Assembly (NCBI GenBank): GCA_963854835.1
Contig: OY978527.1
Span: forward strand, 44,528,040-44,592,039
Length of the DNA stretch: 64,000 nucleotides
Source: Megamerina dolium
Lineage: Eukaryota; Arthropoda; Insecta; Diptera; Megamerinidae
Reading direction: 5' to 3'
Shown here: one piece after another, positions 8,574-60,696 of the stretch
Position numbering within the stretch: the first letter of the stretch is position 1
Layout of the letters: every line of letters starts with the position of its first letter
Translations under genes and position numbers: made by a program
The notes under the pieces: generated by a model
Databases searched by the model: none
What the model was told of the DNA's origin: nothing
The model's input: the letters and a program-made list of their open reading frames with translations, nothing else

Positions 8574-11500
8574 GTCAGTTAATATTTTTATTTTAATATT
8601 GAAATCTATGTAAAAATCTAACCCTTTTATGAATTGATTGTTTTTTTATTGAATCTTCCCACGTGTGTAGAAGTCCGTTCAGAGGGAAGAGTCGTTTGTT
8701 ACTACACTAATTGGAGTGTGTATCGACCTGGTACAGCGAAATACAATCCACAGAATATAAATCCGTATCTGTGTACACATTTAGTGTATGCATTCGGTGG
8801 ATTCACAAAAGATAATCAAATGAAACCATTTGACAAATATCAGGATATCGAACAAGGTAATGCAAAAACAATTTCTGATTTATCTTATGCGTATATGCGC
8901 TACAAATTTATATCATCGAATAGGTGGTTATGCAAAATTTACTGGTCTTAAAACGTACAATAAACAATTGAAAACAATGATTGCCATTGGTGGCTGGAAT
9001 GAGGCTTCATCTCGCTTCTCACCACTGGTGGCCAATGCTGAACGACGTCAGAAATTTATTAAAAATATTTTGAAATTCCTTCGGCAAAATCATTTTGATG
9101 GTATCGATTTGGATTGGGAATATCCGGCACATCGTGAGGGTGGAAAATCTCGTGACCGTGATAATTATGCACAATTCGTGCAAGAACTACGAGCTGAATT
9201 TGAACGCGAAGCTGAAAAAACGGGACGTCCGCGTCTATTATTGACTATGGCCGTTCCAGCAGGTATTGAATACATTGAGAAGGGTTATGATATTCCAAAA
9301 TTGAACAAGTATTTGGATTGGTTTAATCTGCTGACTTACGATTTCCATTCATCACACGAGCCATCGGCAAATCATCATGCACCATTATATTCATTAGAAG
9401 AAGAGTCCGAGTATAATTTCGATGTTGAATTGAATATTGTAAGTTTTTTAGTACAATGAAGTGGCCCTTAGCTCCATGAAGAATAGTTTCTTTAGTAATT
9501 CAAAGGGCCATTCTGCCCTTTGCATTAGAGAAATAAAAACGGTTAAGTCATTAGCTAAGGACCACTCTTATTTACATACATACAAGAACTTGTGTAAATC
9601 AAAAATCTTTTTTTTTATTAGGACTATGCAGTCAAATTCTATTTAAAAGCTGGTGCTGATCGTGATAAGCTAGTACTGGGTATTCCTACCTATGGTCGTT
9701 CCTATACTTTAATTAATGAGGAGAGCACAGATATTGGCGCACCGTCTGAAGGTCCTGGTGAGAAAGGCGACGCTACAAGAGAAGAGGGTTACTTAGCCTA
9801 CTATGAGGTAAAAGAACTTAAGAAATGTGAAGATTATGTTTGCATTATACAATTGTTTTCTTTATGCTCATGCAGATTTGTCAGAACATCAAAGAAGACC
9901 CAGAATGGACAGTAGTTCATCCTAATCCTAACGCTATGGGACCTTACGCTTATCGTCGAAATCAATGGGTAGGATATGACGATGAAGACATAGTACGTAA
10001 GAAGGCACAATATGTCGTTGAAAACGGTTTGGGTGGCATCATGTTTTGGGCAATTGATAATGATGATTTTCGTGGTACATGTACTGGTAAACCATATCCT
10101 TTGATAGAAGCTGCAAAAGAAGCAATGTTGGAGAACTTAGGGTATTATTTTTTCTGAAATACTATAAGAGAAACTGAGAAAAATTATAATCTTTATATTT
10201 TATATTCTTCTTTCAGACTCGGTATCAATGAAGTTTCGAAACCTAGCTCTCCTAAGAAACCTCTAAGGTCCAGAAGTCGCGAAAATACATCTTCAACACG
10301 TAATCGTATTGCTAATGAGAAACCAGAAAAGGAGATTACGCGCAAACGTACCCAAGCAAGTACAACAACACCGCCAAGCACCACATTTAAACTCACTGAA
10401 GCAGAAGGATCATCTCTATATATCGGTGGTCGCACCACTCCACCCCCGCCAACCACTCCTGATCCAGGCGTTGGTAGGATTTAAAAATGCGTTCATTTTC
10501 TTAATATTCTTGAAACTATATTTGTTCTATATGTTCTATACTTCTTTGTGGTTAATGTAGATTTTAAATGTGAAGAAGAAGGCTTCTTTCAACATCCACG
10601 AGATTGCAAAAAATATTATTGGTGTTTGGATAGCGGACCATCTGGTTTAGGAATAGTTGGGCATCAATTTACTTGTCCATCTGGTCTCTACTTTAATCCG
10701 GCTGCAGATTCTTGCGATTTCGCACGCAATGTACCTTGCAAAACGCAAAAGTAAATTGAAAATACCTATTCAATATAAATTGTATCAAATAATATGTGCA
10801 TATATTTTACATTTACGTAGATCAACAACTGCTTCTCCTGGTAAAACTACAAGCACCACAACAGCTCGTCCGACTAATGCACCGAACAGAATTACAGCTG
10901 CTACCTCTCGCACCTCTTTCTTTAGAACGACTACGACTAGTACCACTACTGCCTCACCAGAAGATGATGAAGAATATGAGGATGATCATGAAACTGCGGC
11001 TCATAGTAAAGAAAGGGATCCAGAAGAGGATCCACAAGTTATTAAAGAACTTATCGAATTAATACGTAAAGTAGGTGGCATCGAAGAGCTGGAAAAACAC
11101 TTCTTACACAAGGAAGATGGCAGCATTGCTTTCAAGGAAACTCAATCCGGTTCGGATGCATCGACAACACCATCTTCCATAAGTAAAACACTCTATGACA
11201 AGGTTCTAAGTCGACCAGGCACTTATAAGTCATTCCGAAATCGTCTAACGTCATCATCGCTATATCGTAGTACCGGCCAAACTAAACCTAAACAAAATAC
11301 GCAAGAAGAAGAAGACGATCTGGCAGAGGAGGAACAAAGCAAAACAGCTAGCTCGGGTTCCTCAAAATATTCGTCTGTTGTGCGTGGCAATAGCAGACAA
11401 GGTCCACAGAATGAAGGTTTGGAAAAATTAGCTGAATTTGATGGATTCCTCAAAGAAAAGAAACAATATGTAACGATAAACCGAAACAAAGGATCAACTA

Positions 11501-14500
11501 AAGTGCATGATAAGGAAGATGCTGAAGACGAATATGAAGAGGTGGAAGAAGAAGCTGAAGATAAATCTAAAACGACAAGAAGACCGGTCGGAGGAGCTAC
11601 ACCATCCTATAGCAGTATAAGGAGAAGCCGGCCAACAACAACCAAACCAGACGAGGTCGAAACTGAGGAAGACAGTAAACTCGAAAAGGAAAGCGATAAA
11701 AAGGGCAAAATAGGCGTTGAGAAGAAAACGTACACGCCATTAAGCAGAAATCGCGGAAGAATTACTACTGAAAAACCTGAAGCAGATGAGATCGTGTCAA
11801 CAAATAAGTAAGCTTCGTCAACTATTGTGTGGTATAATTGTGTCAAACACGAAATTTGCATTGTCTTACAGATATAAATACTTAGAACGAACACGTCCCA
11901 CAAAAACCATAAACAGATCGGATCAACTAGAAGACACCACAAGCAGCCCTGACGGCGATGACGGTGAGGAGGAGGAGGAGGAGGACAAGCCAAATGTTAC
12001 GGTACATGAAAAGGATGCTAAAGATTCTACACACAATTCACAAACCACAACACGTATCTACGCGACCATAAACCGCAGAACTACAACACAAGAAACTCCA
12101 ACAACTAGCACCAACAACCCCACTGAAACGTCAACAATTAAAACCGATACATTAGCAAACGAAACTCCTGAACCACTCACAACATCTACTAACCCGAATC
12201 AAAATTCCGCTACCACTACCACACCATCAACTCCCATCACATCCACCATTACTCTCATAACCGAAAATGATGATGATGATGACTCATCATCAGAATCCTT
12301 AACGACAACCATTAGTCCTAATGATATAGCTTCCTCTAACATAAACTCAAAGGAGTCCTCCTCAGTCCTTTCCCTTGACAGTAATTCTCTGATAGGCGAA
12401 TCACCGGCAGAAACTGAGACTAACTCTAGTCTACACAAAATAGACCAGAATGCTGCCGATAATTTCAATAGTAGTAATGAAGCAACGACTACAACGACTA
12501 CTGCCCAGACATCGACCAAAACGCTAATCGGCACAACTGACTCTGACCATTCATCAGACGAGGTAACGAATATAAGTAGTAATAATAGTGATAAGAGTAT
12601 ATCAAAGACACAATATAAATACACAACAAGAACCAGAAATTTAACATCCACCAACACCAATACAGCGAAAGATATCGATACTAATAAGATATCTACCTCA
12701 ACCAACACAATTACCAATACGAGTGAACATACACAAACTAGTCTTAATGATGATGATAGTAGCAATAATTTAAGTAATCATAATAATAGTATTAGAGGTA
12801 ATAGTTTTAAATATTCTGGTGGTAGAAGACAACAACAGCAACAAAAACAACAACAACAACAACTAAATCAATTACATAATCGTAAATCCCAAATCCAACA
12901 GACCGCTACTCGTACTACTACCGAGTCAATTCCCACTAATGAATTCCTGGGAACCGTATCTAGTCCAAGACCATTTGGTTTCCCTAGACGTCGTACGCGT
13001 CCAACTGCTAGTTCGACAACAACATCAACACCAACAGCGACAGAAGAAATCAAAAATAACAATTCGAACGAACATGAAGAAGATGAAGGAATTGGTTCAA
13101 ACGTACTAACAAAGAAAATTTCTACTACGCTAAATTCGGTGAATAAGGTGAGTTCCGAAGTACAAAAGAAAAAAGAAGATGTTGATGAAGAGGAATTTAG
13201 AAACAAGATAACGGGCACTACGAACACCCAAAATGAAACCCAAACGCATGTTGTAGAAGTAGTTGATAACAACAATTCTAGTTTAAGGCATGTTGTAGGT
13301 AGTGAACTTAGTAATTTAAGTAGCCGGGACAAAACGAAAAAGATCGATTCTATTAAGGAATCAAATACCGCAGATAAAGTAGCACATATTAATACATTGG
13401 CTATCGATAGCAAAGACAAAAAGTTTAGTAAGAAGGATGATAGTTTGTTACACTCCAGCCCCAAATATCGTGGCAAAAATTTTGAAGCTCACTCCGAAGA
13501 AAATGATATATCAAAGGAACACCTTGGCGCAGGGAAATTCAGAAGTCGTGGTTTAAAAACGGTTGCTGTGGATACGGAGACCAGTAATGAAAACTCCTTA
13601 AGCGAAGATCATGACATTAAGCTATTGGAACCCTATGACTTAGTCGATAATGATACCAAAACAGAAGTTCAACAATTCGTGACAAAAAATGAAAACAATG
13701 GTACCACCACCACCACTACTACCACCACGACTACTACAACCACGACGTATACTCTCGTAAATGGGGTCAACGTTAGTCACGTAGAACCGGCGGTCGCAAA
13801 TGAAACTAATGAATATAGTGAAAACCAATCAATAATTGACAATGCTAGTGGAAATTCTTCAGAAGCAAATAGTTCCACAAAATCGGAAAATACAATTGAA
13901 AACAATGAAAATGCTAAGACGTCTAATACAAATGATATCGAATCTAATCAATCCATCAACACCACAATTATTGAAGATGAGGCAACCGATGACGGTACTC
14001 AAAGGATCACAGAATATAAAGTATTCACCAAGGACGGCAGCGTTGTCGATAATAAGATTGAAGAAACTGAAAGTAGTAGCAATTCTACAAATGGAAGTAT
14101 TCTAACAACTACCAAAAATGAAACACAAACTGTGGAAGAGGCTGACGGAACTGTGCGACAAACAACAAGATATCAAACTGTTACCAGAGACAATAAGGTA
14201 CTCGGTGAGGTCGGAGTAGACCAACAAAATGGACAAATAATTACTCACTCACACGCAGACGTAGATGGCGAAACAAAAAATCGCAAAGCAATTGAATACC
14301 AAAATACATCTGTCCTCAACGGAACTGAAAGGAATGACACTTCTATTGCATCAAATAGAAAGCTGGCGATAGTTGAAGAAAATGTTGCATCCATTTTTGA
14401 AACTGGTAATGATACTGAAGAGTCAAAAACAGCAGAAGAAGAAAATATTAGTAAATTAGAAAATGAACAAAATGGAAATACCGCCAACACAATAAATTAT

Positions 14501-17500
14501 AATGCTACTGATGAAGATTGGTCCAGTCTTCTTATAAATTTGGCAGCCTTTGCAACACCTAATGATACGGATAAAGGAACAATAACGATAGACGCCAATA
14601 TTCTCGAAACTACTACGGAACAACAAGCTGAGAGTTTAACAGAGAAAATATATAATATTGATGAAGAGGAAAGTATTGCTAATGATAGTAAAACTGAAAT
14701 AACACTTTTATCTCTGCATGAAGTCAAGGAGAACTCAACTGAAGAAAATGAAAAGAGCGAACAAATTAATAAAGATGTGGAAGGTATTTTAGATCTTGAA
14801 AAAATAACCGCAGATTCAACCGAAGCGTCATTAGTGGGATCAACTGAACCCATCTTTGAAGTAGGGGAAACCACAACCGCAACTTCAACCACAACCCTTG
14901 TAACTACAACACCTACATTTGATACCACTACCAGCAATGCTGCATCAATAGAAGAAACCAGTACTAAAAGAACATCATTTAGAAGCCGTGGGTCAACAAG
15001 TACCACTCAATCAAAGAACGAAGACACCACTGCAAGAACTTCTTACAAAAGGCTGAAGTCTACAAAACAAACAGCTATATCGATAGAAGAGAGCACCGAA
15101 GATATTACTACCACTGAACAACCCAAAACATCGACATTTAGTAAACTTGGGTCGAGAAGAAAAATTCAATTAGCGAGGACATCTGTGGATACTTCAGCAG
15201 AGGATGATTTTGAGCATTTAAGTGATCATAGAAGCACACCGAGAACGCCTGCTTATAAGGGCACAATTTCTCGTGGCACATATCGTCCTCCAAAAGACGA
15301 GGACTTGTCTTCTTTGCTGGCCATTGATGCTAACAAACGACATGGATACACTGATGATGTAAGTCCGCAAGGTAGCAGGAGACGCAGACCCATTGATAGG
15401 ATTAAAACAACAACAGAAACTGAAAATGAAATCGTCACAAAAACAAGGAGGCCCACTATTAGTTCCAAACGTGTGGCATCAAATAATGCAGATACCAACG
15501 AGCATAATGATTCCACTGAAGCTCTTCAGAAAAGTAATTCGATTCACTCAAATCTATCAAGTGAAAACCACGGAGAACACGAACACGTTGTCGAAATTGG
15601 ACAAACACGAAGAACTATTGAAAAAAGTACAGCAATTGCGGGTCAAAATGGAAGACGAAGAGTTGTAGTCAAATTAAAGAGGCCAATAAATGCTGCTGGC
15701 ACATCTTCAAACGATATTGACATTTCAAACCACACCACGGCAGTTAAAAATACGTTCAATGAAACACAAGTGCAAGTAAACACCGAAATGGAAGTGGTAG
15801 CTTCTAATGAAACTGTATCTGATTCTACTGAGAAATTAGATGATGGATTATCGCGTAATAAATCATTATTAAAAGACGTATCTGAATCGAATATTGATGA
15901 AGACGAAGCAAAGAAAAATGAGGGTACAGCAAATGATACAGAAAGTGAATCTGATATAAACGAATCTTCTAAGAAATCCAACACGTTTGGACGAGCAAAA
16001 CTTTACAATCGAGCGGATCATAATATCAAACAAAGTTCTGAATCGTCAGAAAAGGTAAACGAAAACAATTCGTTTGAAAGGTCTCGACCCAACACCCGCA
16101 GTAATAAACATTTTAATCAAAATGTCGAAAATAAAATAAACGATGTAGAAGAAGAAGAAGACAGTGATGTAAATAATAGTCAAGTAGCCGATGAGAAAAA
16201 TAAACAAACTAAACTCACATTAACCAGTTCAAGCGAGAGTACTAACTCTGCACGTTCAAGATATAATGGTCGTGGTCGACTAAATGCACAAAATGGCTTG
16301 AGATCGTCACAGAAAACAACAACCGAAACGGAATCTGATGAAAACGGTTCAACTAAAACCCGTACCGTGTCCACACGAACATACAATCATGGAGTTAACG
16401 GGCAGAAAACTATAAAACGCACTCACACGAAAACTGTGAAGGAAGATCAACCCGAATATGAATATGTTTATGATGTTGTTACCGAAACTGTGGAACCGGC
16501 AACACCGCGACCTGTGACACGTAATCGAGGTAGCGTTAAATTCAACAATGCAGATTTGTCATCTTTGCTTGCTTTGGATTTTGTTTCGAAATCAAACCGT
16601 AAAGCTGAAGGCGAAAAGACTATTGTAAAGACTAGAAGGCGTATAATAAAGAAACCAAAAGTTGTGACTGAAACCGATGAGGTTGAGGAGGAAGAATATG
16701 AATCCGAAGAGCCTTCAACTAGACCGCCTCGACCAACAACAACAACCACAACGGGTACCACTACTACTAGCAGACCGATTGTACGTCGCACTAGACCAAC
16801 GAGACCGGCGCGTACAACTACGGTATATCCTTCCAGCACCACAGAGCAGATAGAAGACAATGGAGAAGAGTCGACAACTGCTACACCACCTGCTCATCTT
16901 ACAACTAGAAGAGGGCTTGCATTTAGGCGGCCTACACAAAGACCTATACATAAAGACGAAATTAATGACAAAGATGTTGACTCTAGTAAACCAACAAGCA
17001 ATGAGGAAGCAATTAAAGAGGTTAAAAAATATAATTTCAAAAGTCGTGTCCAGCTTAAAACATCAACTACAAGGACGACTACCGAAGAACCGTTATCAGA
17101 TCTGACTACAACTCCCGAAGACACTTCTACAACAACAAGGCCTACTTTAAGTCGCAAAGTCATCAAACTTCGTCGTCCAGTCTCTTCATTGAATGCTATA
17201 GACAAAAAAGAAAATTCTGAATCAAATGATATTGCGGAAACTACTCCCGCAACCATAGACCCAACCACAACTGCCTCTAAAGATGTTGCCACCGCCACAT
17301 CGACAGTACAAAACGATACTTTAAATATCGAAACTATAGAAACCAATAAAACAATAGCACTATTGCCGTCGCCAACTGATAATAATACGGATCAATTGGA
17401 TCAAGAAACCGCGAAAACGACTACGAAAATAACTGAAACCTCAACTAATACAACTGAGCATAAGACTTCAACGATAGATGATAGTTTGGAGAAATTGAAA

Positions 17501-20500
17501 CGTACCTTTTCGAAGGCTGTTAATAGATTGAAATCTTCCGAAAGAGAAGAAACAGTCACCTCCGACAATCAACTCGATAACTTGTTTACCAAAAAATATA
17601 CAACAAATACAAAATCGATAACTAAAGAAGAGACACATTTAGACGATAATACAGAGTCAGCACTCAACTCAGAGGCGGCAAGTGAATCGAATAATGAACT
17701 GAATACTAGTGATGATGAGCTCTCATTGCCAATATACCATCGACGAAAATACTATCAATACTATAAAGATTCTCCAATAATCTATGTAGGTAAAATTCAG
17801 CAGCAGAGCAAATCTACTATAGATGTGAAGAAACAAATTCATGACGTCTTTAATGTAAGTCATAATCAGCTAGTCACACCAACTGATTCTGCTGAGACAG
17901 AAGAAAATTTAATAGCAGAACAAGCAAAGGAAATAAATTCAGAGATCGGTAATTTTTTATTGAAAACCCCCAGGTCGACGTAGAGGGTTACCTGGGGGAA
18001 AAATTAATCGGTGTAAATAATTTAAACAGCAGCAAATCAAGTGAAAATACAAACGTAAACCGTAATAAAGCGAACTTTGGCTTAAATCGAACAAGATTTA
18101 CGGATAGAAAATATGAAAACAATCGAAGAAAGATAACAACAGAAAATCCACTCAACAATACAGCTGAGGAGGTAACAAGTCCATCGGAAATAAAAAAATT
18201 AATGGTTACTTCAACAGGAGATATTGCAATCAACCTAAGTACTGATTCTGGCGAGGAGGATGATGCTGAAGATGAAAGAACTACACCTAACGCAGAGACA
18301 GATACTGTCAGAAGTACAAGACTAAATCTAGAGTCACGGGGCTCTAGCTTCAAAACGCACCGCCCGTATACGTTGTTGAATCGAACTCGTGCTACTGACT
18401 CAACACTTGCCACAGAATCTTTAAGTGATATAGAAAATGTTACCAATGATGAAGATGACACAGTGGTAACAACGCCTAAACGTACTTATGCCATATTAAA
18501 TCGTTTGAGAACTCAAACAAACAAACCCAAAATCCGAACTCAAAATGCAGAGGGTCATGACCAAGATGATTCTGATGCAGAAGGCGCTTTAGAGCCGACT
18601 GTTTCTACATTACAACGTCCATACATTGGAATTAACAAATTTAGAAGTTCCACACGTACAACAATAGGTCCAACTGAAATAACGAGTGAAGATAAAGATT
18701 ATGGACAAGTTGCAACAACAAAACGAAGTTATACTTCAATAAACCGTTTAAGGAGTAATTCTGTAACATCAAAGTCAACTGCCGATAACGCTGATGATGA
18801 TGATGATGATGATGATGATAATGATAATTACGGTACTACTTCGACACGTCGTCCATATACTGGCAGAATAGACGTATCAACAAAACGTACATATACAGCC
18901 CTCAATCGATTAGGTGGTTCCGTTACCACAATTGAAGAGGATGAAGATGATGATTTAATTGCAAAATACATTGCCACCACCACAAATGCTCCCACAAGAC
19001 GTTTATATACTGAAATTAGACGCACGAAAACAAAAACTACAATTGCAGACGAACGAGATTCTGTAGAGGAGAATGAAGAAAGTTCAACAACAAAAAGAAA
19101 TCACATTACATTAGACCGTTCACGAACCCGAGTTTCGTCGTTGGACAATGCGGGTCATAATGAAGATGAGGAAGACCTAAGTACCACATCATCATTTACG
19201 CGCCGGCCATACGTCAATATTAACCGACTAAGAAGCAGTACTACTAAGAATCCCAGTATAGCACTAGAAATAGAAGCAGAAGAGCCAATTGACAAAACAG
19301 ATACATCAAAAGTGGAAGCTTCCTCCCGAGAAACAAACGGTCTTCGAAAAACGTTTAATCAGCGTACTTATACTGATACCAAAATATTAAGGTTAAAGAA
19401 TAATAACAGTACTTCACAAGAAGTTTCTGATGAAAATGATCAAATAACACTTGATACGACTACTGCTAATAACTTAAGTGAAAAAACTGACCCTACGAAT
19501 GAAGTTGAAATTACAACTGTTATAGCTGCTTTAGATGAACCCACAGAAAATGACAATGCAGTCAGTACAATACACCGTACTTACACGGACATTAAAACCC
19601 TAAGAGCAAATAGTGTAATCAATAGTTCGTTGGAAATGTCCAATGAAAATAGTACATCTGAGGATACCGCAATTGAGATGGCAACGACACCTAGCGGTAG
19701 TGACGATACAGATCTCACGACAATATCACCAACTGAAAATGTCGAAGAGAACGAAGATGCAGCTTCTGAAACGTTTACACCTGGCTTGGTGTCGGAAAAG
19801 TCAAACACTAGTGCTGTAAAAATTGAAGATACAAGTACCGTAAACGTGACTGATGAATCAAATTCAGGAGACTACATAACCACTACAATGTCTACTAGTG
19901 ATGCATCAGAAGATCAGGAGGATAAGAAATATACGACAGAATCTGCTGTCGAAACAGTAACGAATAAAACTGCAATTAATACATTGAGTACATTGCTATC
20001 AAAGAAACGTATCCGCGTATCAAATACAACAGTTGAACCCGATAATTCCACAATTTCGAAAACTGTACTAAATGATACAGAGGCACTATCGAAGACGAAT
20101 AAATTACGTATTCCAACCACAAGAAGGTCCTACACTCAATTGAATCGTGCTAATACGAAGAGTAGCGAATCCCCCAATGAACCAACCAACGAAGACTCTG
20201 ATTCTAGTACTACTCAGCGTACACTTTCTCTACTGAAACGGTTTCGTACCACAACCGTAAAATCCAATATTGAAGAAGATGGAACTTCTAAGGTACCCGA
20301 AATCGATACAAGTACACGTCGCACACCTGGAATCTTTAGTCGCACACGAAGTACAACCACTGTAGCTCCCGAAGAAGATGTCGAAGAGAATGAAACTGAC
20401 GTGGAATCACCAAAAAAACAAAACGTTGTCCCCTTTGGCAAAAGAGGACGTCCAACAATAGCTTTAAAAACCCAACCAACTCCAAAACTGAATATCGCAT

Positions 20501-23500
20501 CCTTTAAGAAAAAACCCAATTACATATCGGAAAAAGAAGAAGAGCAAGAAACAGATGATGAGGGACAGACAGATACATCCACACTTAGACCGTTCAATTT
20601 GAAACGCCCACAACTAATCACAAATAATCGCGCAGGTAAACAATTATTCGGTAATCGTCCAAAATTTAATCTACAAAGAAAAGGCGATGAAGTATATTCT
20701 AATGAAAAATCGGGCGAAGATTATGATGAAGACGATGAATCTAGCGATAGAGAACCAAACTTAGCCACCACTTCTGAACGAACTAATAATTATAAATATA
20801 CGCCAAAACGTTTTAACGCTTCGGACTCTGTTAAATTAGGTCTTAAGACTCTTTCAAACGTACGCCCACAAGATGAGGACTCAACTTCAGACGAAATAAA
20901 AGAAAATGAAAATGTACATAACACCACTGTAGATATTACTAACGAGAAGGTCACAATTATTAACAAACCAACTTTCAACTTAAGCACATATCGTAGTAAT
21001 AGTAGCAATACTAACCGTAGTAACACCGTAGCCAATTATTTCAATAGAACTAAAACTAATTTAAGTGTAAAGTCTAACAATTCTAAATTCACTGCAACTG
21101 TTAATAGTGCTGTAGAAAATAATGCAGAACAGGAAGATGATAATGAAAGTGGGGTAGATGAAGATAACGCTAATAATGATAATGAGGGTAATGTTGAAGT
21201 TAATTCTAACCGACGTTTTCAGAAATACCAATTCAACCGTTCAAGACCAACAACAACAACTACAACTGCTGCAACAACAGCCACGCCGAAAATTGTCAAG
21301 CAATCGGGAAGAAATAGAACGTCAACTGTTCAGGTAAATGATCTAGTAGATGGTGATGAAGAAGAAGAAGAAAATCATGATGGTGAAGAAGAAAATACAA
21401 CCACGTCTGAAAGCACTCAAAGCTCTAGTCCAGCTTCACCAACACCAAGACGCATTAGGGTCTTGAAATCTCGTCGCCCTGTAGGTGGCACCCTCAATGC
21501 TACTGTAGCTGATATTAGTCATACTAATGCAACCACTGTTAGTTCTACTAATGTAACCAACGTTGTTGTTGCCAATAGTTTAGATACCCCAACAGTTGTT
21601 AGCAATGTAGAACAGCAAGTAGTTAGTTCTCCATCCCAAACTCAAAACTCTGAAACAAATCAAAACACCACAACCACAAAACGCTTCCGTAAAGTAATAC
21701 GTAAGCTCATTAGGCCAGTAAATGCGACAAAAGAAACAATTTCCGAAAGCAGTGGAAATACCACAGAAACTCATTTGACAATTAATACCCCCACACTAGC
21801 ATCTCAACAAAGGCGCCAGAATGGTACTCGTTTTGGTTTTAATCGTAGCACAAATTTTGGCCCCAATAAACAGCAAGATATTGTCGCAGATGAGGAGAAA
21901 GATACACATGAAAGAAAGGCCTTCTCAACTGGAAGCGGTAAAACTCGTTTTTCCTCAACTGCATCTGACACAACGGAAAGAGTGGGGCTTTTTGGAAATC
22001 GCCGATTTGGCAATAAGGGTCCCATAAGAACCACACCATCGCCTTTACTAAAGAGCGATGATGACAATGGCTCTGAAGTAGAGGACGAAGAAGAAGAGCA
22101 TACAGCTGAAGATGACGCTACATTAAATAAACCTACAGCTCAAAGAAGCCGTTTGCTTCCTTCAAGGAGACCATATAACAGTGCCAACTTATCACCTTCC
22201 ACAGAACGTAGTGCACAAAGTTCCGTGAAAACGTTTGTTCCTCCATCACGAAAACCATTTTCTTTCAATCGAGTTAGCACCACAGCGAAAACTATTAGCG
22301 GTGAAGAAGAAGAAGAAGATGAATATTATGACGAGGATAAAACTGAAGAATACGAAAATAACGAAGAAAAGAAAGTTACATTTTCCACAAATCGTGGTTT
22401 TACACCTAGAAAGTCCTTTACAAGAAATGGCTTGTCTTCTACAACAGAAAACGTTGTAGAAAGAACGACAGCAAATCCGGCTCTATCTCCATTATCTCGG
22501 AAACCATTCTCATTCTCTCGAACAAGTACGACTACCAAAGCTTCAGTTGAAGACGACCATGAAGATTCCACTGAAGACAGTGACGAAGAGCTCGAAGACG
22601 AAAAGGAATCAAAGACTAATAATTCAGATACTAGTACACCAAGGACAGTATCCTCATCACGAATTCCTTATTCATCCATTTCTAGATTGAGACCATCAAT
22701 TGAATCGTCTAATAAGAGTGAAATACTAAACAGCACTGAAGACAACGAAGGTGAAGATAACACGAGTGTGCTAAATAAAACGTTGTCACTTACATTTGCA
22801 CAAAGAAAGGCTTTAGACGCCTCATCTAAGGAAAACGCAACAAACGACGGTGCTACTATAGACAGCAAGGATGAAGACATCAAGGTGAACGTTCTCTCAG
22901 CACAAAACCAAACAATTTCAATCGAGTCTCCTAAAAGCAATACCACCACAATATTGTACAAATCATCTAATTACCCAAAAGTAAATATTACAACTGAAGA
23001 TGATGAATTAGTGGCAATCAATGAAGATGACAATGACGATAGCGCAGAAAGGGGAAAGGACGGAAAAGATGGAGAAGTTAAAGTTGAGCAGAGTAACGGT
23101 GTTTTAAAGAGACGTCTTAAGAAAATTATACTGGTACGTAAAAATGGCGGAAATACTACAAATGTAAATTTGGATGTTACCGGACTCACTGAAGAAGAAA
23201 GGAAAGCCGCTTTACAAAAATTACGCAATCAAATTAGAGAGGAACAAACAAAGGAAAAGGATGCAGATGGCGTTTTAATTGAGGACAAGGAAATAACAAG
23301 CAATGCCACTAACAGTACAACTGATGTTACCTCTCTTCTTAAGAGTTTGTTACTAAATCGAACCAATATTAATTCGACGCAAAATGTTGAAAATGTCAAT
23401 CACTCGAATACAACTGACGTCATAGATGAATATGAATCAGATGAAAAATCGATTACAGATAAACCTAATAATGGTTCTAGAATAAAACCCTTCCCCTCTA

Positions 23501-26500
23501 GACGACCATTTGTAATCGCCCCTAAAACAGAACCTACAGAAATAGAAACAACTACGGATGGCAGTGATGATGATGGCTCAACAGAAATATTAGAAAGTAC
23601 AACTAATACTCTCCCCACAACTCGTTCCACGTATCGCAAATTAGTTGCTAAACGCCCATACGTCCCACCAAAGCCTTCATCATCAGCCATTTCTACCACA
23701 GTAAGTCTACAAAAGCAAGAGGAGCGTACATTTGTCCCTCGTAAGGGCTTTGGACGCGGCCATACTTTCAGTGGCAATACACAAAATACCGATGAAGGAT
23801 TTATACGTACAGAGCCTCGAGAATCTCTTCTGCCTGGTACAAATCGTTTTAAAACCGAGCATAAGATTCGTGAGCAAAATGGTCAAACAGGTGACGACGG
23901 ACATAGTGACGAAAATGAGAATGATAGCGACGAGAGTCAAAAGAGTGAAGATCAAAATCAGAAAACAGAAACCACAGTCACATCTTTTAATCCATTAAGA
24001 GTAACAGTCACCAGACCACCGGGATTATTTAGTAGATCACAGACATCTATCCTTAAGAAGCCAACAGATGAAAATGTGACGAATAAAAATGAGGAAAGCG
24101 AAGAAGAAAATGACAATGATGCTGACGATGATGATGGTGATGGCGATGATGATGAAGATGAGGACGATGATGAAGAGGAAAATGAAGAGACCACTGAAGA
24201 TGGAATAGACGAAGAGAAAAAAACAGAAACCATACCAAAATTCAATACCCCATCGTTCCGGCCAAAGAATAACCTTGTATCGCCGGGAATACGGCCGACA
24301 TTGCCGACTTTAGGAAGTTCATCCTTCAATTCAAGAAACAGTCAATCAAACGCATTGAATCGTTCAACGGCATTTACAAGTAGCACAAGTGGAATTCGTT
24401 TTGGCAATGGACGCACCACGGCACGACCGCGAGTTGTCAATAGACCACCAGGTGTCGCTCCACCGAATCTCACATTGAAACCAATTGCTCAAGATTACGA
24501 ACGTACAACAGTATCCACACCCACCAAACCGGCGCCATTCATTCCAACCAATACACGCTTATATGAGCGTAAATATTCTGCCACATCCACAGAAACACCA
24601 GAAATCAATGTCGATAACTCACTTATAGAAGATCTTAATATCGAAGCACTGAATGCACGTAACAAAAAGATTTTCGATATTAACAGTAAAAAACACACAA
24701 CTTTGAAACCGAAAGTCGCAATACCCTCCACCAAGTTAACACCAACAGAGCAACAAGAATTAGAACACGAAACTCAAAACAACACCCAACAAAACACTCA
24801 AACTGAAAACGATGATGGGTACACACAATCAAGCCATAGCTCTGGTGTAGAAGGTTACATCACCACCACACCACGAACACAATTCGTTTTTGATAACACA
24901 AACACTGGTTACAATGTCAATGCTAATGAGATTTCTTCACAGGACAACGCTAAGGAAAACGGGCTCACTACAACTCTGCCGCCCGCAACAACACTTGTGC
25001 ACATCTTCACAGTAACCGATGACGAACAAACAAGTAAACCATTAACGGCTGATGGCGATGAAGCAGAGCCATCACCACGTCCGGTGGCCGAAAAAGTGCG
25101 TCCCAAACACAAGGTTGTCGAAATAAATCGCATTGTGGAAATTACATCCAAAGAGGATAAAGTACGACGCAAATCGAAGTCAAATCACGAACTCTTTAGC
25201 CCTGTCGGAACGTCGAGTCTGAAGGTTGAATCACTGCCACATGTTGAACAGTTGGGAGAAATAAGTGTGGTTAAATACGTTCACCTTGTAGACGGTAGCG
25301 ATATTGAAATCAATGGCCATAGTACAGTAACAGATTACACGCCTACCGATGCAACTGTAACAAAAAATCCAGTGACAGGGCCAGTTCGAAATTCCCTGCC
25401 CACAGACACCGTACACATATATGAATACTCACAAAATGAGGTTGCACCAAGATATTTTTATGAGCATTCGACTGAAGGTGCTCGAGTTCGTACTACCCTC
25501 GAACAACGTTACGGTAAATCACTACTACCAGAAGTTATCCGTGAAGCAATCGAAACATCGACTATTTCGTTAGAAGGTCTTTTCGATGGCACAAATAAAA
25601 GTAAAGAGTTGAATACAGCTGATAGCGAAGTTCATGCATACACGTTGGGTGATGATGCCGCACCCACAACAACACCTTCATCGGACATCGCTAGCTTAAC
25701 TACTACAGATAATATTGCTCAAATAATCGATGAAGTGGGATTAAACTTGATTGCCGCAAGAGCACCAACATCAAATGCTGAAGTTGCCGAAATTACCATA
25801 AGCAATACAACAGAAGAAAATAATTTAATAACCACTACGGAAAACAGCGTTAAGGCTACCACAGTGCCTGCAACACTATTTCCAACATACGTAAGACCAA
25901 TTGTACCCCTACTACGTCCAGAATCTAATGAATCCTCACACTTTGTCATATCCATTGCTAACCTTGATAGGGTCATATTAAGAAAAGGTAATAAGACCAT
26001 TGCGGAAAACGCAAAAAGTTTTGAACCGCAAGGTGACGAGAGCATTAACGACTCTAGTGCTGCCTATTCGAGTCGTCATGCTTCCATAGTAGAAGCACCA
26101 ACAAATATTTTACACGAAAGAAATGGTCGAAAATACACTTCAAGTGCACACACAAATACGCACTTATCGAAAACTTGGACAAAAAACAATAATGATTTGG
26201 TTGGTAACATTAATAGTACTAACAGTTCTAGCAGCAATTATACAAGTAGTAATAGTAGTAGTAATGATCCTATTGTAAGTAGCTCTAGTGGCAGCAGTGT
26301 TAGCGAAACTGTCAGTTTTAGTGCAGAAACCAATGTCGTGCGTAAGAAAAATCCACGACGCAAACATAAGTTAAGACAGTTTAGAACATCAACAACAACA
26401 ACCCCAGTGTCCGTATCAACACTTCAGAGTGATTATGAAACAACAACAACGACAACAAATGTTTAAAAGCACTTAAATTACTCTTGTCTTAATTATGTAA

Positions 26501-35500: not shown

Positions 35501-36421
35501 CTGTAAATGCAGTCGACACTGTTGAACATCGCCGGGACGACGATGAAGAAACTAATTTGGTTGCTGCAATAAAAACAATTTCAGAAGTTTCGCCACAGGC
35601 AAAACATGTGTTCAAACCACCATCACATTCAACCCCAGGTGCAGATGTACGTACGAATTACAAGCATAACGAGACTCTTAAACGACGTATGGACACAACG
35701 TTATTACAAGCCGGAAGAACAACAACAACGACGAGTATGTAAAACGGATATTACTGGAAACGATGATAATTGTGTGAATGAAATTGAATTGAAATATGTG
35801 TCTTTGCTTTGATTTTAGGGAGAACCCCAGTGACGAAGTTTCGACCGCAGACGACTACTCCTCTTCCGCCACAAAATAAACCGTCATCATCGCGCATTGC
35901 ACAAAAAGAAAGTAACACTGAGAGTCGTCGACGTCCACACAAATACAATGAACCATTTGATCGTTTGAATCACAACAGTAACAACAACAATAACAGCAAC
36001 AAAAATGCCAAGGACAATCAGTCAAAAGCGGTCGTTAAAACAACTTCATCACCAGCCCCCGGACGAACTTATAGACCAACAATTGACTACGACTATTATG
36101 ATGATGAAGATGTACGTATAGTGGGCGATACCGATGGGCAAGAGGTAGCGTATTCAGCAACATTTCCAATGTCATATTAAGCAATTAATTAATTTACTAT
36201 TTTGATTGCAGCCTAAGGTGATTCTGCATGGTCGTGGCATCATAGAGTGTTTGGACCAAGGCAATTTTCCACATCCTCTGTCATGCCGTAAATTTATATC
36301 GTGTGCTAAATTTGAGACAGGCGGAGTTGTGGGTTGGGAATACACATGTCCGAAAGGTCTGAGTTATGATCCAGTCGGAGGCATGTGTAATTGGGCAGCT
36401 GGTTTGGGTTGTAAAGAGTAA
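8513..36421 (+). CDS. Cht6: Giant group-VI chitinase Cht6 (gene span, 13 recognised coding exons)
   Basis: Secreted chitin-acting protein of the cuticle matrix. Exons inferred from splice sites and phase: 8513-8573, 8671-8856, 8924-9438, 9622-9807, 9876-10141, 10217-10473, 10561-10750, 10821-11807, 11872-26274, 32683-33163, 35243-35734, 35819-36144, 36212-36421. Order of domains: signal peptide, GH18, CBM14, very long Thr/Ser/acidic mucin-like region, second CBM14, stop. All splice phases close, provided that one -1 frame change near 17953-17980 is allowed. The spliced length is then about 6,190 residues without the unseen start exon, which is longer than the Drosophila protein as I remember it. 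The initiation codon lies further upstream and was not found. Identity rests on the GH18 motifs plus the giant low-complexity tail, a combination characteristic of Cht6. Confidence 0.88.
8671..10473 (+). CDS. Cht6: Cht6 GH18 catalytic domain exons
   Basis: Five exons (8671-8856, 8924-9438, 9622-9807, 9876-10141, 10217-10473) encode a complete glycosyl hydrolase family 18 domain that hydrolyses beta-1,4 linkages in chitin. Conserved regions visible in order: RVVCYYTNW and the YAFGGF strand; KTMIAIGGWNEAS; FDGIDLDWEYP, with the full D-x-x-D-x-D-x-E signature and catalytic Glu codon at 9118-9120; NLLTYDFH; and GGIMFWAIDNDDF. No key residue is missing, so the domain should be catalytically competent. 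After the domain the last of these exons passes into a Pro/Thr-rich linker. Introns are small (67 to 183 bases) with canonical ends. Reading through the donor at 10142 would give a stop after GYYFF. Confidence 0.92.
10561..10750 (+). CDS. Cht6: Cht6 exon: first CBM14 chitin-binding domain
   Basis: Encodes one peritrophin-A type (CBM14) domain with its six cysteines: FKC, RDC, YWC, FTC, DSC and VPC, plus the aromatic residues of the fold (HPRDCKKYYWC). It joins the GH18 linker through a phase-1 intron and leaves in phase 2 at a GTAAAT donor. The donor itself spells a stop in frame (AAG TAA), so a transcript keeping this 70-base intron would end right after the domain and give an ordinary chitinase of about 550 residues. 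Confidence 0.9.
10821..11807 (+). CDS. Cht6: Cht6 exon: start of mucin-like linker
   Basis: About 330 residues rich in Thr, Ser, Glu and Lys. It contains early members of a recurring motif of the form K/R-x-Y-x-x-I/L-x-R-x-R, for example KQYVTINRNK, PSYSSIRRSR and KTYTPLSRNR. The donor GTAAGC again carries the in-frame stop (AAG TAA) if not spliced. The next exon begins after a TTACAG acceptor at 11872, completing a Lys codon. Confidence 0.85.
11872..17983 (+). CDS. Cht6: Cht6 giant exon, frame-0 part (ends at TAG)
   Basis: About 2,030 codons of Thr/Ser/Asn/Asp/Glu-rich sequence with long Thr and acidic runs, poly-Gln around 12830-12865 and many N-x-S/T sequons. It looks like a heavily glycosylated extracellular spacer. 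A short phrase recurs inside it: DEDLSSLLAID near 15298 and NADLSSLLALD near 16545. The frame closes at TAG 17981-17983, but the same kind of sequence continues at once in the -1 frame. This stop is therefore either a regulated end, bypassed by frameshifting at 17953-17959, or an artefact of one missing base. If it is used, the product would be about 2,920 residues with one CBM14. Confidence 0.85.
17953..17998 (+). promoter_or_regulatory. Cht6: Candidate -1 programmed ribosomal frameshift signal
   Basis: In frame 0 the codons run GGT AAT TTT TTA TTG. Bases 17953-17959 therefore form the slippery heptamer T TTT TTA in the exact phase required for -1 slippage (X XXY YYZ). After a 7-base spacer (17960-17966) comes a perfect stem: CCCCCAGGT at 17967-17975 pairs with ACCTGGGGG at 17990-17998, with a 14-base loop holding the frame-0 stop TAG. 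Slippage by -1 moves reading into a frame open from 17953 to 26466. The required shift direction, the heptamer, the spacing and the stem all agree with known -1 frameshift sites. A missing T in the T6 run is the alternative. Confidence 0.7.
17953..26466 (+). CDS. Cht6: Cht6 giant exon, -1 frame part
   Basis: The frame is open from 17953 and reads ENPQVDVEGYLGEKLIGVNN onward for about 2,830 codons, with the same composition as the upstream part. Its first third (about 18355-20400) is a degenerate tandem repeat built on R-x-Y-T-x-I/L-N-R-L-R. Later variants read SRKPFSFNR and SRRPF. Poly-Asp and poly-Glu stretches occur near 18790-18830 and 24115-24190. It ends at TAA 26464-26466, but a consensus GTAAGT donor at 26275 in phase 0 connects to the exon at 32683, so both a terminal form and a spliced form are possible. 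The end is followed by several AATAAA signals (about 26593 and 26633), consistent with an alternative 3' end. Confidence 0.85.
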   Translation, partial: FFIENPQVDVEGYLGEKLIGVNNLNSSKSSENTNVNRNKANFGLNRTRFTDRKYENNRRKITTENPLNNTAEEVTSPSEIKKLMVTSTGDIAINLSTDSGEEDDAEDERTTPNAETDTVRSTRLNLESRGSSFKTHRPYTLLNRTRATDSTLATESLSDIENVTNDEDDTVVTTPKRTYAILNRLRTQTNKPKIRTQNAEGHDQDDSDAEGALEPTVSTLQRPYIGINKFRSSTRTTIGPTEITSEDKDYGQVATTKRSYTSINRLRSNSVTSKSTADNADDDDDDDDDNDNYGTTSTRRPYTGRIDVSTKRTYTALNRLGGSVTTIEEDEDDDLIAKYIATTTNAPTRRLYTEIRRTKTKTTIADERDSVEENEESSTTKRNHITLDRSRTRVSSLDNAGHNEDEEDLSTTSSFTRRPYVNINRLRSSTTKNPSIALEIEAEEPIDKTDTSKVEASSRETNGLRKTFNQRTYTDTKILRLKNNNSTSQEVSDENDQITLDTTTANNLSEKTDPTNEVEITTVIAALDEPTENDNAVSTIHRTYTDIKTLRANSVINSSLEMSNENSTSEDTAIEMATTPSGSDDTDLTTISPTENVEENEDAASETFTPGLVSEKSNTSAVKIEDTSTVNVTDESNSGDYITTTMSTSDASEDQEDKKYTTESAVETVTNKTAINTLSTLLSKKRIRVSNTTVEPDNSTISKTVLNDTEALSKTNKLRIPTTRRSYTQLNRANTKSSESPNEPTNEDSDSSTTQRTLSLLKRFRTTTVKSNIEEDGTSKVPEIDTSTRRTPGIFSRTRSTTTVAPEEDVEENETDVESPKKQNVVPFGKRGRPTIALKTQPTPKLNIASFKKKPNYISEKEEEQETDDEGQTDTSTLRPFNLKRPQLITNNRAGKQLFGNRPKFNLQRKGDEVYSNEKSGEDYDEDDESSDREPNLATTSERTNNYKYTPKRFNASDSVKLGLKTLSNVRPQDEDSTSDEIKENENVHNTTVDITNEKVTIINKPTFNLSTYRSNSSNTNRSNTVANYFNRTKTNLSVKSNNSKFTATVNSAVENNAEQEDDNESGVDEDNANNDNEGNVEVNSNRRFQKYQFNRSRPTTTTTTAATTATPKIVKQSGRNRTSTVQVNDLVDGDEEEEENHDGEEENTTTSESTQSSSPASPTPRRIRVLKSRRPVGGTLNATVADISHTNATTVSSTNVTNVVVANSLDTPTVVSNVEQQVVSSPSQTQNSETNQNTTTTKRFRKVIRKLIRPVNATKETISESSGNTTETHLTINTPTLASQQRRQNGTRFGFNRSTNFGPNKQQDIVADEEKDTHERKAFSTGSGKTRFSSTASDTTERVGLFGNRRFGNKGPIRTTPSPLLKSDDDNGSEVEDEEEEHTAEDDATLNKPTAQRSRLLPSRRPYNSANLSPSTERSAQSSVKTFVPPSRKPFSFNRVSTTAKTISGEEEEEDEYYDEDKTEEYENNEEKKVTFSTNRGFTPRKSFTRNGLSSTTENVVERTTANPALSPLSRKPFSFSRTSTTTKASVEDDHEDSTEDSDEELEDEKESKTNNSDTSTPRTVSSSRIPYSSISRLRPSIESSNKSEILNSTEDNEGEDNTSVLNKTLSLTFAQRKALDASSKENATNDGATIDSKDEDIKVNVLSAQNQTISIESPKSNTTTILYKSSNYPKVNITTEDDELVAINEDDNDDSAERGKDGKDGEVKVEQSNGVLKRRLKKIILVRKNGGNTTNVNLDVTGLTEEERKAALQKLRNQIREEQTKEKDADGVLIEDKEITSNATNSTTDVTSLLKSLLLNRTNINSTQNVENVNHSNTTDVIDEYESDEKSITDKPNNGSRIKPFPSRRPFVIAPKTEPTEIETTTDGSDDDGSTEILESTTNTLPTTRSTYRKLVAKRPYVPPKPSSSAISTTVSLQKQEERTFVPRKGFGRGHTFSGNTQNTDEGFIRTEPRESLLPGTNRFKTEHKIREQNGQTGDDGHSDENENDSDESQKSEDQNQKTETTVTSFNPLRVTVTRPPGLFSRSQTSILKKPTDENVTNKNEESEEENDNDADDDDGDGDDDEDEDDDEEENEETTEDGIDEEKKTETIPKFNTPSFRPKNNLVSPGIRPTLPTLGSSSFNSRNSQSNALNRSTAFTSSTSGIRFGNGRTTARPRVVNRPPGVAPPNLTLKPIAQDYERTTVSTPTKPAPFIPTNTRLYERKYSATSTETPEINVDNSLIEDLNIEALNARNKKIFDINSKKHTTLKPKVAIPSTKLTPTEQQELEHETQNNTQQNTQTENDDGYTQSSHSSGVEGYITTTPRTQFVFDNTNTGYNVNANEISSQDNAKENGLTTTLPPATTLVHIFTVTDDEQTSKPLTADGDEAEPSPRPVAEKVRPKHKVVEINRIVEITSKEDKVRRKSKSNHELFSPVGTSSLKVESLPHVEQLGEISVVKYVHLVDGSDIEINGHSTVTDYTPTDATVTKNPVTGPVRNSLPTDTVHIYEYSQNEVAPRYFYEHSTEGARVRTTLEQRYGKSLLPEVIREAIETSTISLEGLFDGTNKSKELNTADSEVHAYTLGDDAAPTTTPSSDIASLTTTDNIAQIIDEVGLNLIAARAPTSNAEVAEITISNTTEENNLITTTENSVKATTVPATLFPTYVRPIVPLLRPESNESSHFVISIANLDRVILRKGNKTIAENAKSFEPQGDESINDSSAAYSSRHASIVEAPTNILHERNGRKYTSSAHTNTHLSKTWTKNNNDLVGNINSTNSSSSNYTSSNSSSNDPIVSSSSGSSVSETVSFSAETNVVRKKNPRRKHKLRQFRTSTTTTPVSVSTLQSDYETTTTTTNV
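18355..20345 (+). repeat. Degenerate protein tandem repeat in Cht6 spacer
   Basis: A basic-aromatic motif recurs every 30 to 60 residues, separated by acidic Asp/Glu and Thr-rich spacers. Examples: HRPYTLLNRTR, KRTYAILNRLR, QRPYIGINKFR, KRSYTSINRLR, KRTYTALNRLG, RRLYTEIRRTK, RRPYVNINRLR, HRTYTDIKTLR, RRSYTQLNRAN, RRTPGIFSRTR. Related but looser copies lie in the upstream part (RIYATINRRT) and downstream (SRIPYSSISRLR). This is an ordered motif array, not random low complexity. Confidence 0.75.
28384..28615 (+). repeat. 232-bp direct duplication, copy 1
   Basis: Identical to 31119-31350 except for one base that I could see (ACAGTG versus ACAATG), including a CACACACACA run and AT-rich context. 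Both copies lie in the same orientation 2,735 bases apart inside the Cht6 intron. Confidence 0.85.
28813..28846. repeat. Perfect 15-bp hairpin with 4-base loop
   Basis: ACAAAAGTACAATGC (28813-28827) and its exact reverse complement (28832-28846) are separated by AGTG. It would fold as a very tight stem in DNA or in the intron RNA. Confidence 0.7.
29933..30200 (+). mobile_element. tRNA-derived SINE, copy 2
   Basis: Begins GGGTGCCGTAGC with a partly deleted tRNA-like head (the B box has become GGTTCACCCCCC). The body is shared with the copy at 3195-3545, including CCTGTCGGCAAGCAATTG and AGCTTCTAAAAGAACTCTGT. TATGGAAAG occurs on both sides (29924-29932 and 30201-30209) as a likely target duplication. 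The 3' end differs from copy 1 by an internal deletion. It sits within the Cht6 intron in sense orientation. Confidence 0.75.
31119..31350 (+). repeat. 232-bp direct duplication, copy 2
   Basis: Second copy of the block at 28384-28615. The flanks differ on both sides, so the unit is sharply bounded. Confidence 0.85.
32683..33163 (+). CDS. Cht6: Cht6 exon: Thr/Ser/Asn-rich segment
   Basis: Starts after a TTATAG acceptor in phase 0, matching the phase-0 donor at 26275. It reads LHTPTASLSKTAISRRPVLS and continues with Thr/Ser/Asn-rich sequence and the basic phrase KFYRNRNRPTAS, similar to the motif of the giant exon. It ends in phase 1 before GTAAAT (TDENG split). If not spliced, the frame stops at 33181-33183. 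The phase match on both sides is the main evidence. Confidence 0.75.
33164..35242 (+). other. Cht6 intron, no features recognised
   Basis: About 2.1 kb of AT-rich sequence between two phase-compatible exons. I see no gene or clear transposon; homopolymer T runs and short ATATA stretches only. Confidence 0.6.
35243..35734 (+). CDS. Cht6: Cht6 exon: Thr/Pro-rich segment
   Basis: Begins after TTTAAAG, with CA completing a GCA codon from the previous exon (phase 1), and reads TEPPRTQNPLFKRRFSITST onward. About 160 residues, Thr-rich with an acidic stretch (HRRDDDEETNL). The best donor is GTATGT at 35735 in phase 1. It joins GG at 35819 to give Arg. Using the next GT at 35739 would break the frame. 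Confidence 0.75.
35819..36144 (+). CDS. Cht6: Cht6 exon: Asn-rich segment with Tyr/Asp cluster
   Basis: Reads RTPVTKFRPQTTTPLPPQ onward, includes a poly-Asn run, and ends with an acidic Tyr cluster (DYDYYDDEDVRI). The donor is placed at GTAGCG (36145), phase 0, matching the CCT start of the next exon. GTACGT at 36112 is also in phase 0 and would shorten the exon by 11 codons, so the exact end is uncertain. Confidence 0.7.
36212..36421 (+). CDS. Cht6: Cht6 last exon: second CBM14 domain
   Basis: After a GATTGCAG acceptor the exon reads PKVILHGRGIIECLDQGNFP and contains one six-cysteine CBM14 domain (IEC, LSC, ISC, YTC, GMC, LGC), then ends KE and TAA at 36419-36421. This places a second chitin-binding module about 5,600 residues away from the first, so one long molecule could bridge chitin fibres. 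An AATAAA lies near 36840. Confidence 0.88.
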   Translation, partial: PKVILHGRGIIECLDQGNFPHPLSCRKFISCAKFETGGVVGWEYTCPKGLSYDPVGGMCNWAAGLGCKE

Positions 36422-38719: not shown

Positions 38720-42070
<3,351 letters not shown>

Positions 42071-60684: not shown

Positions 60685-60696
60685 ACATGTATGAAA

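What the first reader, a model, noticed from the sequence alone, without database searches (positions are those of the whole stretch)
17953..17998. Textbook -1 ribosomal frameshift signal inside the giant chitinase gene Cht6
Seen directly: frame 0 ends at TAG 17981, while the -1 frame is open from 17953 through more than 2,800 codons of the same composition. It joins, in correct splice phases, to the exons of the second CBM14. At the junction: slippery T TTT TTA in the correct phase, a 7-base spacer, and a perfect 9-bp stem (CCCCCAGGT / ACCTGGGGG) whose loop holds the stop. Known: X XXY YYZ plus a stem about 5-9 bases downstream is the standard -1 signal. The chance of the required direction, phase, heptamer, spacing and perfect stem coinciding at a random sequencing error is small. 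Inferred: the ratio of a ~2,920-residue one-CBM form to a ~6,190-residue two-CBM form is set by translation. I know of no report of this in an insect chitinase.
Basis: partly seen in the sequence, partly recalled or inferred. Interest (0 to 1): 0.95.

Follow-up and report, generated by a model that had tools for sequence, protein, structure and literature searches.

The report
Likely ribosomal frameshift in fly chitinase
In a fly's giant chitinase gene the reading frame stops at a site that related flies appear to share and carries on one base back, next to the sequence signal that makes ribosomes slip, so one message probably yields two proteins of very different length; unseen splicing is not yet excluded.

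Summary
Frame 0 of the giant Cht6 exon stops at TAG 17981-17983; the -1 frame is open for 2,837 codons from 17953. At the join lie T TTT TTA in phase, a 7-base spacer and a perfect 9-bp stem. The heptamer occurs once in the 14.6-kb exon, and the stem is the exon's strongest local fold.

A sequencing error is very unlikely: four relatives' ORFs (two close pairs) end at the same residue, and two have a downstream ORF on a contig of equal length.

Annotated relatives reach the distal part through an alternative intron that maps to 13148-21222 and skips the junction, so a two-CBM form need not require frameshifting. And a possible splice acceptor (17973) lies inside the signal.

The first ~1,080 codons of the -1 frame look coding, yet only one of 55 annotated relatives was seen to carry that segment, with probes weak outside Drosophila. 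I favour a -1 programmed frameshift (about 0.62); unannotated splicing is the main rival. No relative's DNA could be read, so conservation of heptamer and stem is untested.

The parts
8926..9438 (+). GH18 catalytic exon of Cht6 (part)
   Evidence: Pfam PF00704 E 1.2e-53; 92-95% identical to the annotated fly proteins compared
10557..10745 (+). first CBM14 domain
   Evidence: Pfam PF01607 E 1.2e-14
11872..17983 (+). proximal part of giant exon, frame 0 (ORF1), ending at TAG 17981-17983
   Evidence: tail aligned with P0004-P0007, similar in P0018, P0019, P0013
13148..21222 (+). alternative intron, 8,075 nt, AAG|GTGAGT ... TTTTCAG|AAATAC, joins frame 0 to frame -1 by splicing
   Evidence: junction read from annotated A. 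obliqua P0009 and P0011 before KYQFNRSR; same acceptor in P0010 and P0013-P0015; inferred for the window, no RNA seen
17953..17959 (+). slippery heptamer T TTT TTA in phase
17960..17966 (+). 7-base spacer TTGAAAA
17967..17998 (+). proposed stimulatory stem-loop: 9-bp perfect stem, 14-base loop containing the frame-0 stop
17953..26466 (+). -1 frame ORF (ORF2), 2,837 codons plus stop
   Evidence: homologues
17855..17973 (+). rival: candidate 119-nt exitron AAT|GTAAGT ... CCCCCAG|GTC, phase 0, 2 mod 3
   Evidence: interior is coding-like in frame 0 and partly protein-conserved
36209..36418 (+). second CBM14 domain, last exon
   Evidence: Pfam PF01607 E 4.4e-10; 98.6% identical in B. tryoni P0016

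Best explanation
-1 programmed ribosomal frameshifting. On messenger RNA that keeps the whole giant exon, ribosomes read ORF1 to T TTT TTA. The stem 7 bases downstream stalls some of them; the P- and A-site tRNAs (Phe, Leu) slip back one base, and translation continues as ...N-F-L-I-E-N-P-Q... into ORF2. The rest add seven more residues (L-K-T-P-R-S-T) and stop inside the stem-loop. Two products follow: a protein of about 2,900 residues with one CBM14, and a giant one that adds ORF2 and, where the 3' exons are spliced on, the second CBM14. A separate alternative intron (13148-21222) makes a shorter distal form without frameshifting. Shown: signal, frames, coding character, and the ORF1 end shared by four relatives' ORFs. 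Inferred: that slippage happens, its efficiency, the retained mRNA, and conservation of the RNA signal in other flies.
For: Complete and correctly spaced signal, with the exon's only TTTTTTA and its strongest fold at the one 28-base overlap where the frame must change. P0004, P0005, P0006 and P0007 (the four hits; two pairs of close relatives, so about two independent comparisons) end at the same residue as ORF1. P0053 and P0057 are downstream ORFs on contigs of the same lengths (30,946 and 31,697) as those of P0005 and P0004, so a two-ORF layout exists elsewhere. The 8 fetched sequences that contain HDVFN (window included) all carry [HN]-F-L, compatible with NNT TTT TTR. ORF2 looks coding from the junction on: 1 of 25,239 noncoding segments scores as high before the first ATG, and openness of 1,089 codons has chance about 10^-73 by the stop rate (290 of 2,022) of the same frame in the ORF1 region. 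ORF2's 5' part was detected in 1 of the 55 annotated relatives, the D. virilis model P0018.
Against: No reads, ribosome profiling or peptides were available. No relative's DNA was reached (each by six short peptide patterns), so ORF2's frame, heptamer and stem in other species are unknown. A possible splice pair spans the junction; chance gives a short one as good at 36 of 1,370 exon positions, or 19% of positions if longer introns are allowed. Donor 17855 scores 4.1, above the nine apparent intron donors of the gene scored; acceptor 17973 scores 1.2, like the 21222 acceptor at 1.1. DmCht6 is given as 4,498 residues (PMC3097210, passages), long enough by my estimate to hold both ORFs, while FlyBase in 2015 listed only Oda and, in a note, Apc as frameshifted (PMC4528330, passages; its supplementary gene lists not read): the D. 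melanogaster model may cross by an intron. Three annotated models (P0013, P0018, P0019) run past the site. The probes for ORF2's 5' part are insensitive outside Drosophila: the window's own first 800 ORF2 residues matched nothing, and one search found no long protein although P0008 and P0012 were of eligible length. One search scored only the 7,975 candidates sharing most words.
Confidence: 0.62

Rival explanations
1. Alternative splicing joins the frames: acceptor 17973 (TTTTTTATTGAAAACCCCCAG|GTC) is used from donor 17855 (119-nt exitron) or from donor 13148. The T6 and C5 are then a pyrimidine tract and acceptor, and the stem, which pairs tract and acceptor with ACCUGGGGGAAAAAUUA downstream, would regulate their use.
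For: Phase 0 and length 2 mod 3 for both donors. Donor 17855 scores 4.1, above the nine apparent intron donors of the gene; donor 13148 scores 8.5; acceptor 1.2. The MFE fold pairs UAAUUUUU and CCCCCAGGU with one contiguous downstream segment. N-V-S at the 17855 donor is kept in the 5 aligned sequences (N-I-S in Glossina P0013). Glossina P0013 has P-R-S at the acceptor, compatible with a kept CCCAG|GTC. DmCht6 of 4,498 residues suggests a spliced model in D. melanogaster (inference).
Against: The 17855-17973 interior is coding-like in frame 0 (0.025% of 52,062 noncoding segments score as high) and its end is protein-conserved, so it is not a constitutive intron. In P0004-P0007, P0018 and P0019 the residue after P is G, codon GGN, so no AG can lie there in the phase that leads to -1, if their ORF2 is in -1. 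ORF2's 5' part was found in 1 of 55 annotated relatives. Heptamer phase, spacing and a stop starting 8 bases past the acceptor would be coincidences.
Confidence: 0.24
2. A small intron at the stop, such as 17974-18029 (56 nt, CAG|GTCGAC ... TTTAAACAG|C), as the D. virilis and D. subpalustris models seem to use at ...KTPGS| and ...NTPG|.
For: 56 is 2 mod 3; P0018 and P0019 change course at that residue. Its donor score, -2.4, is weak but one apparent intron of the gene scores -2.5.
Against: Weak sites: donor -2.4, acceptor -1.4, the latter below the eight apparent acceptors scored (0.2 to 6.7). Automated models may insert introns to escape stops (general knowledge). The -1 frame is coding-like through the stretch (17959-18030: 111 of 25,911 noncoding segments as high).
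Confidence: 0.07
3. Assembly or sequencing error, or a frameshifted allele: a T missing from a run of seven.
For: A homopolymer loss gives a -1 shift and a T-run by itself.
Against: Four relatives' ORFs end at the same residue, two of them with a separate downstream ORF on a contig of the same length. The assembly is chromosome-scale (500.5 Mb in 8 contigs), though its base accuracy is unknown.
Confidence: 0.03
4. ORF2 is started separately, by internal initiation or as a nested gene, or only its distal part is translated through splice 13148-21222.
For: The distal-only splice form is annotated in relatives.
Against: First in-frame ATG is 18202, yet coding signal runs from the junction; about 1,080 open codons before 21222 would be unexplained. 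No signal peptide would precede ORF2 (inference).
Confidence: 0.04

Closest known systems
HIV-1 gag-pol type -1 frameshift (recalled, not fetched)
   Same: Same heptamer U UUU UUA, short spacer, simple GC-rich stem-loop
   Different: Cellular chitinase gene; 9-bp stem with a 14-base loop; the long product is about twice the short one
Drosophila Apc -1 frameshift (Baranov 2011; seen only as described in PMC5009743 passages)
   Same: Chromosomal fly gene, -1 direction, new frame conserved
   Different: In the Apc passage the -1 segment is 125 residues against 13 in nematodes; here 2,837 codons. Different gene; Apc was tested experimentally
Oda antizyme +1 frameshift (PMC4528330 passages)
   Same: Conserved recoding in a fly chromosomal gene
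   Different: +1 and polyamine-regulated
Exitrons and FlyBase 'multiphasic' coding regions (PMC4484396 search listing; PMC4528330 passages)
   Same: Would also put two frames of one exon into use
   Different: Splicing, not translation; needs a junction at 17973, which I did not see in any annotated relative

Membership tests
-1 programmed ribosomal frameshift | In-phase slippery heptamer X XXY YYZ | tested here: met
   T TTT TTA at 17953-17959, codons TTT and TTA in frame 0
-1 programmed ribosomal frameshift | Stable RNA structure about 5-9 bases downstream | tested here: met
   7-base spacer; best 40-nt fold of 14,551 in the exon
-1 programmed ribosomal frameshift | Frame-0 stop soon after and open, coding -1 frame | tested here: met
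   TAG starts 22 bases past the heptamer's end; ORF2 coding signal
-1 programmed ribosomal frameshift | Two-ORF arrangement conserved in relatives | tested here: met
   ORF1 end shared by P0004-P0007; ORF2 as P0053 and P0057 on contigs of the same lengths. The frame of ORF2 there is unknown
-1 programmed ribosomal frameshift | Heptamer and stem conserved with compensatory changes | tested here: inconclusive
   Only protein available: [HN]FL in 8 of 8; no DNA reached
-1 programmed ribosomal frameshift | Measured slippage or trans-frame peptide | not testable with these tools
   no reads, profiling or proteomics
Exitron or alternative intron at 17973 | Splice sites in correct phase | tested here: met
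Exitron or alternative intron at 17973 | Spliced product present among annotated relatives | tested here: inconclusive
   ORF2 5' part detected in 1 of 55, the D. virilis model P0018, which crosses elsewhere; probes weak outside Drosophila
Exitron or alternative intron at 17973 | Acceptor AG kept in the same phase in relatives | tested here: inconclusive
   Residue after P is G, codon GGN, in P0004-P0007, P0018, P0019, so not kept there if ORF2 is in -1; Glossina P0013 has R, compatible
Group VI chitinase Cht6 | GH18 domain, CBM14, very long tail | tested here: met
   Pfam hits; homologues named Cht6 among the hits

The most novel reading that the evidence does not exclude
An ancient -1 frameshift, shared by tephritids and drosophilids, in a secreted matrix chitinase: a simple hairpin and U UUU UUA decide whether the ribosome ends near 2,900 residues or adds up to 2,837 codons and, by the 3' exons, a second chitin-binding domain. 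It would be the longest conserved frameshift extension in an animal chromosomal gene that I know of (recalled, not searched).
Probability: 0.5. Interest if true: 0.85.

Novelty: new member of a known kind. Interest (0 to 1): 0.72.

Why it matters
FlyBase's 2015 account of exceptional gene models (PMC4528330, passages) names one frameshifted D. melanogaster gene, Oda, and in a note Apc. A further fly case, in a chitinase whose product length would be set by the ribosome, would extend cellular -1 frameshifting and explain an ORF that the annotated relatives seen here mostly leave out or bridge. In D. melanogaster it is testable with ribosome profiling, RNA-seq and a reporter. Cht6 knockdown gives enlarged and unstable tracheal tubes (PMC7414880, passages), so a phenotype is at hand.

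Tried and rejected
Sequencing error: set aside because relatives end at the same residue. Constitutive intron 17855-17973: rejected because its interior is coding-like and its end conserved. Donor 17949 with acceptor 17983 is only 35 nt, too short for a fly intron (my arithmetic, general knowledge). Pseudoknot: loop-downstream pairings of at most 6 bp, G-U and A-U rich. Alternative poly(A) at AATAAA 18064: 24 such hexamers lie in the exon, so uninformative. Glossina P0013 past the site: best local score 98 against shuffled mean 73, maximum 103, so no significant match to ORF2; the matched end is KYHFNRSR. First protein search (downstream region, long candidates): nothing at E 0.01. Relatives' DNA in viral contigs and genome contigs: none, each by six peptide patterns. 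Paper searches; no title or abstract start in these listings reports this site, one search found no paper, and only four papers were opened (PMC5009743, PMC7414880, PMC3097210 and PMC4528330: passages, plus the outline of the last). Row 1 used the wrong frame and is dropped; one search has the right value. The splice matrices are from memory and score the gene's apparent introns only modestly (donors -2.5 to 2.2, acceptors 0.2 to 6.7), so their scores rank sites roughly. That P0018 is an ab initio model is recalled.

Full report
What is there. The window holds Cht6, a group VI chitinase: GH18 exon at 8926-9438, CBM14 at 10557-10745 and 36209-36418 (Pfam), and one giant exon from 11872. Frame 0 of that exon (ORF1) ends at TAG 17981-17983. 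The -1 frame (ORF2) opens at 17953, directly after a TAA, and runs 2,837 codons. The overlap is 28 bases. T TTT TTA fills its first seven, then a 7-base spacer and a perfect 9-bp stem whose loop holds the stop.

More than chance. In the exon's 14,592 bases only this place has TTTTTTA or a run of six or more T; of 195 perfect inverted repeats of at least 8 bp in the window (loop 3-25) only this one has six or more G or C. The 40-nt windows starting 17960-17967 give the lowest energy of 14,551 (-21.1 kcal/mol, mean -3.1, sd 2.6); the next best of 16 in-phase heptamers is -9.1. The 61-base fold has z = -3.33 against shuffles. A codon model trained outside the junction shows frame 0 coding up to the site and frame -1 after it. 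Before the first ATG of ORF2 (18202), 17959-18198 scores as coding: 1 of 25,239 noncoding and 0 of 8,617 off-frame segments reach it.

Very unlikely an error. One search found four relatives of the junction region (among 2,236 candidates); all four end at the same residue: window ...EQAKEINSEIGNFLLKTPRST*, P0004 and P0005 ...EQAKEINAELGHFLLKTPGSK, P0006 and P0007 ...EQA[KR]EINSELSHFLLNTPGSV. They are two close pairs (P0004 and P0005 83% identical, the other two 51-52% to P0005), so about two independent comparisons; that each ends at a stop is inferred from the shared end. One search then found ORFs P0053 and P0057 homologous to ORF2 on contigs of 30,946 and 31,697 bases, the lengths given for P0005 and P0004; I take them to be the same contigs. 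P0008 and P0012 are further ORFs of that kind. ORF2 in P0008, P0012 and P0053 begins 28-37 residues before a shared GKTF motif. The window's ORF2 has no GKTF, so its start could not be aligned by that motif.

What the annotation of relatives shows. Of the 59 proteins, 55 come from annotated sources. By exact motif, three of the 55 (P0013, P0018, P0019) contain the ORF1 block HRRKY/HDVFN and 52 do not. The A. obliqua proteins P0009 and P0011 join ...STTIASKTK to KYQFNRSR; P0010 and the Glossina models P0014 and P0015 join to KY[QH]FNRSR from other donors, and P0013 reaches it about 200 residues after the ORF1 tail. B. tryoni P0016 enters further downstream. In the window the A. obliqua junction maps to a donor AAG|GTGAGT at 13148 (score 8.5, best in the exon) and an acceptor TTTTCAG at 21222: 8,075 bases, 2 mod 3. 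That intron removes the junction and joins the frames by ordinary splicing.

What remains to be explained. ORF2 from 17984 to 21222 (about 1,080 codons) is open in -1, while frame 0 has 68 stops in 1,080 codons there. It is spliced out of that form. A motif search and BLAST with six 5' segments found it in one of the 55 annotated proteins, the D. virilis model P0018. These probes are weak outside Drosophila: the window's own segment matched nothing. D. subpalustris P0019 has only the last stretch before the acceptor. Some mechanism must translate this part.

Rivals. Splice acceptor 17973 lies inside the signal. With donor 17855 (GTAAGT) it makes a 119-nt exitron, and it is also in phase with donor 13148; a short pair as good spans 36 of 1,370 exon positions by chance, 19% if longer introns are allowed. 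Against it: the interior is coding-like in frame 0 and its end conserved; P0004-P0007, P0018 and P0019 have glycine after the proline, so the AG is not kept in that phase if their ORF2 is in -1; I saw it in no annotated relative. In its favour: donor 17855 scores above the nine apparent donors of the gene, the acceptor scores like the 21222 one, the fold pairs exactly the tract and acceptor, Glossina P0013 has P-R-S there, compatible with a kept acceptor, and DmCht6 is given as 4,498 residues (PMC3097210 passages), which by my estimate from D. virilis segment lengths needs both ORFs; FlyBase in 2015 named only Oda and Apc as frameshifted (PMC4528330 passages; supplements not read), so its model may cross by an intron. 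This last is the strongest point against my reading. A 56-nt intron 17974-18029 has weak sites.

Verdict. -1 programmed frameshifting is most likely (0.62): the sequence features of the class that could be tested are met, the two-ORF arrangement recurs in relatives, and the splice rivals lack a seen product. Slippage itself, the retained mRNA, and conservation of the RNA signal are inferred. It resembles HIV-1 gag-pol in heptamer (recalled) and Drosophila Apc in being a -1 shift in a fly chromosomal gene (PMC5009743 passages). The listings show no report of it; they cover only the open-licence library.

Limits. No reads, no relative's DNA, splice matrices from memory, organism not named (500.5 Mb, 8 contigs). 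A search of the own genome for other copies of the stem never ran.

Noticed in passing
window 13148-21222: Alternative 8-kb intron inside the giant coding exon whose interior is itself coding in two frames; matches annotated A. obliqua isoform junctions and an acceptor used in Glossina models.
   Followed up: partly
window 37149-37835 (-), 42922-43617 (+), 48466-49161 (-): Three ORFs with Lipase domain next to Cht6, probably yolk proteins by recall (Pfam).
   Followed up: no
window 60673-63666 (+): 997-residue ORF with endonuclease and reverse transcriptase domains, a non-LTR retrotransposon by its domains; observed only.
   Followed up: no
window about 28807-28850: Strong inverted repeat ACAAAAGTACAATGC...GCATTGTACTTTTGT, the only other + strand fold in the window at -19 kcal/mol or below in 40-nt windows.
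   Followed up: no
window 50918-51811 (-): RNA 3'-terminal phosphate cyclase domain ORF.
   Followed up: no
window 44403-45141 and 40430-40597: A 311-base tandem repeat (2.4 copies) and an (AT)84 run.
   Followed up: no
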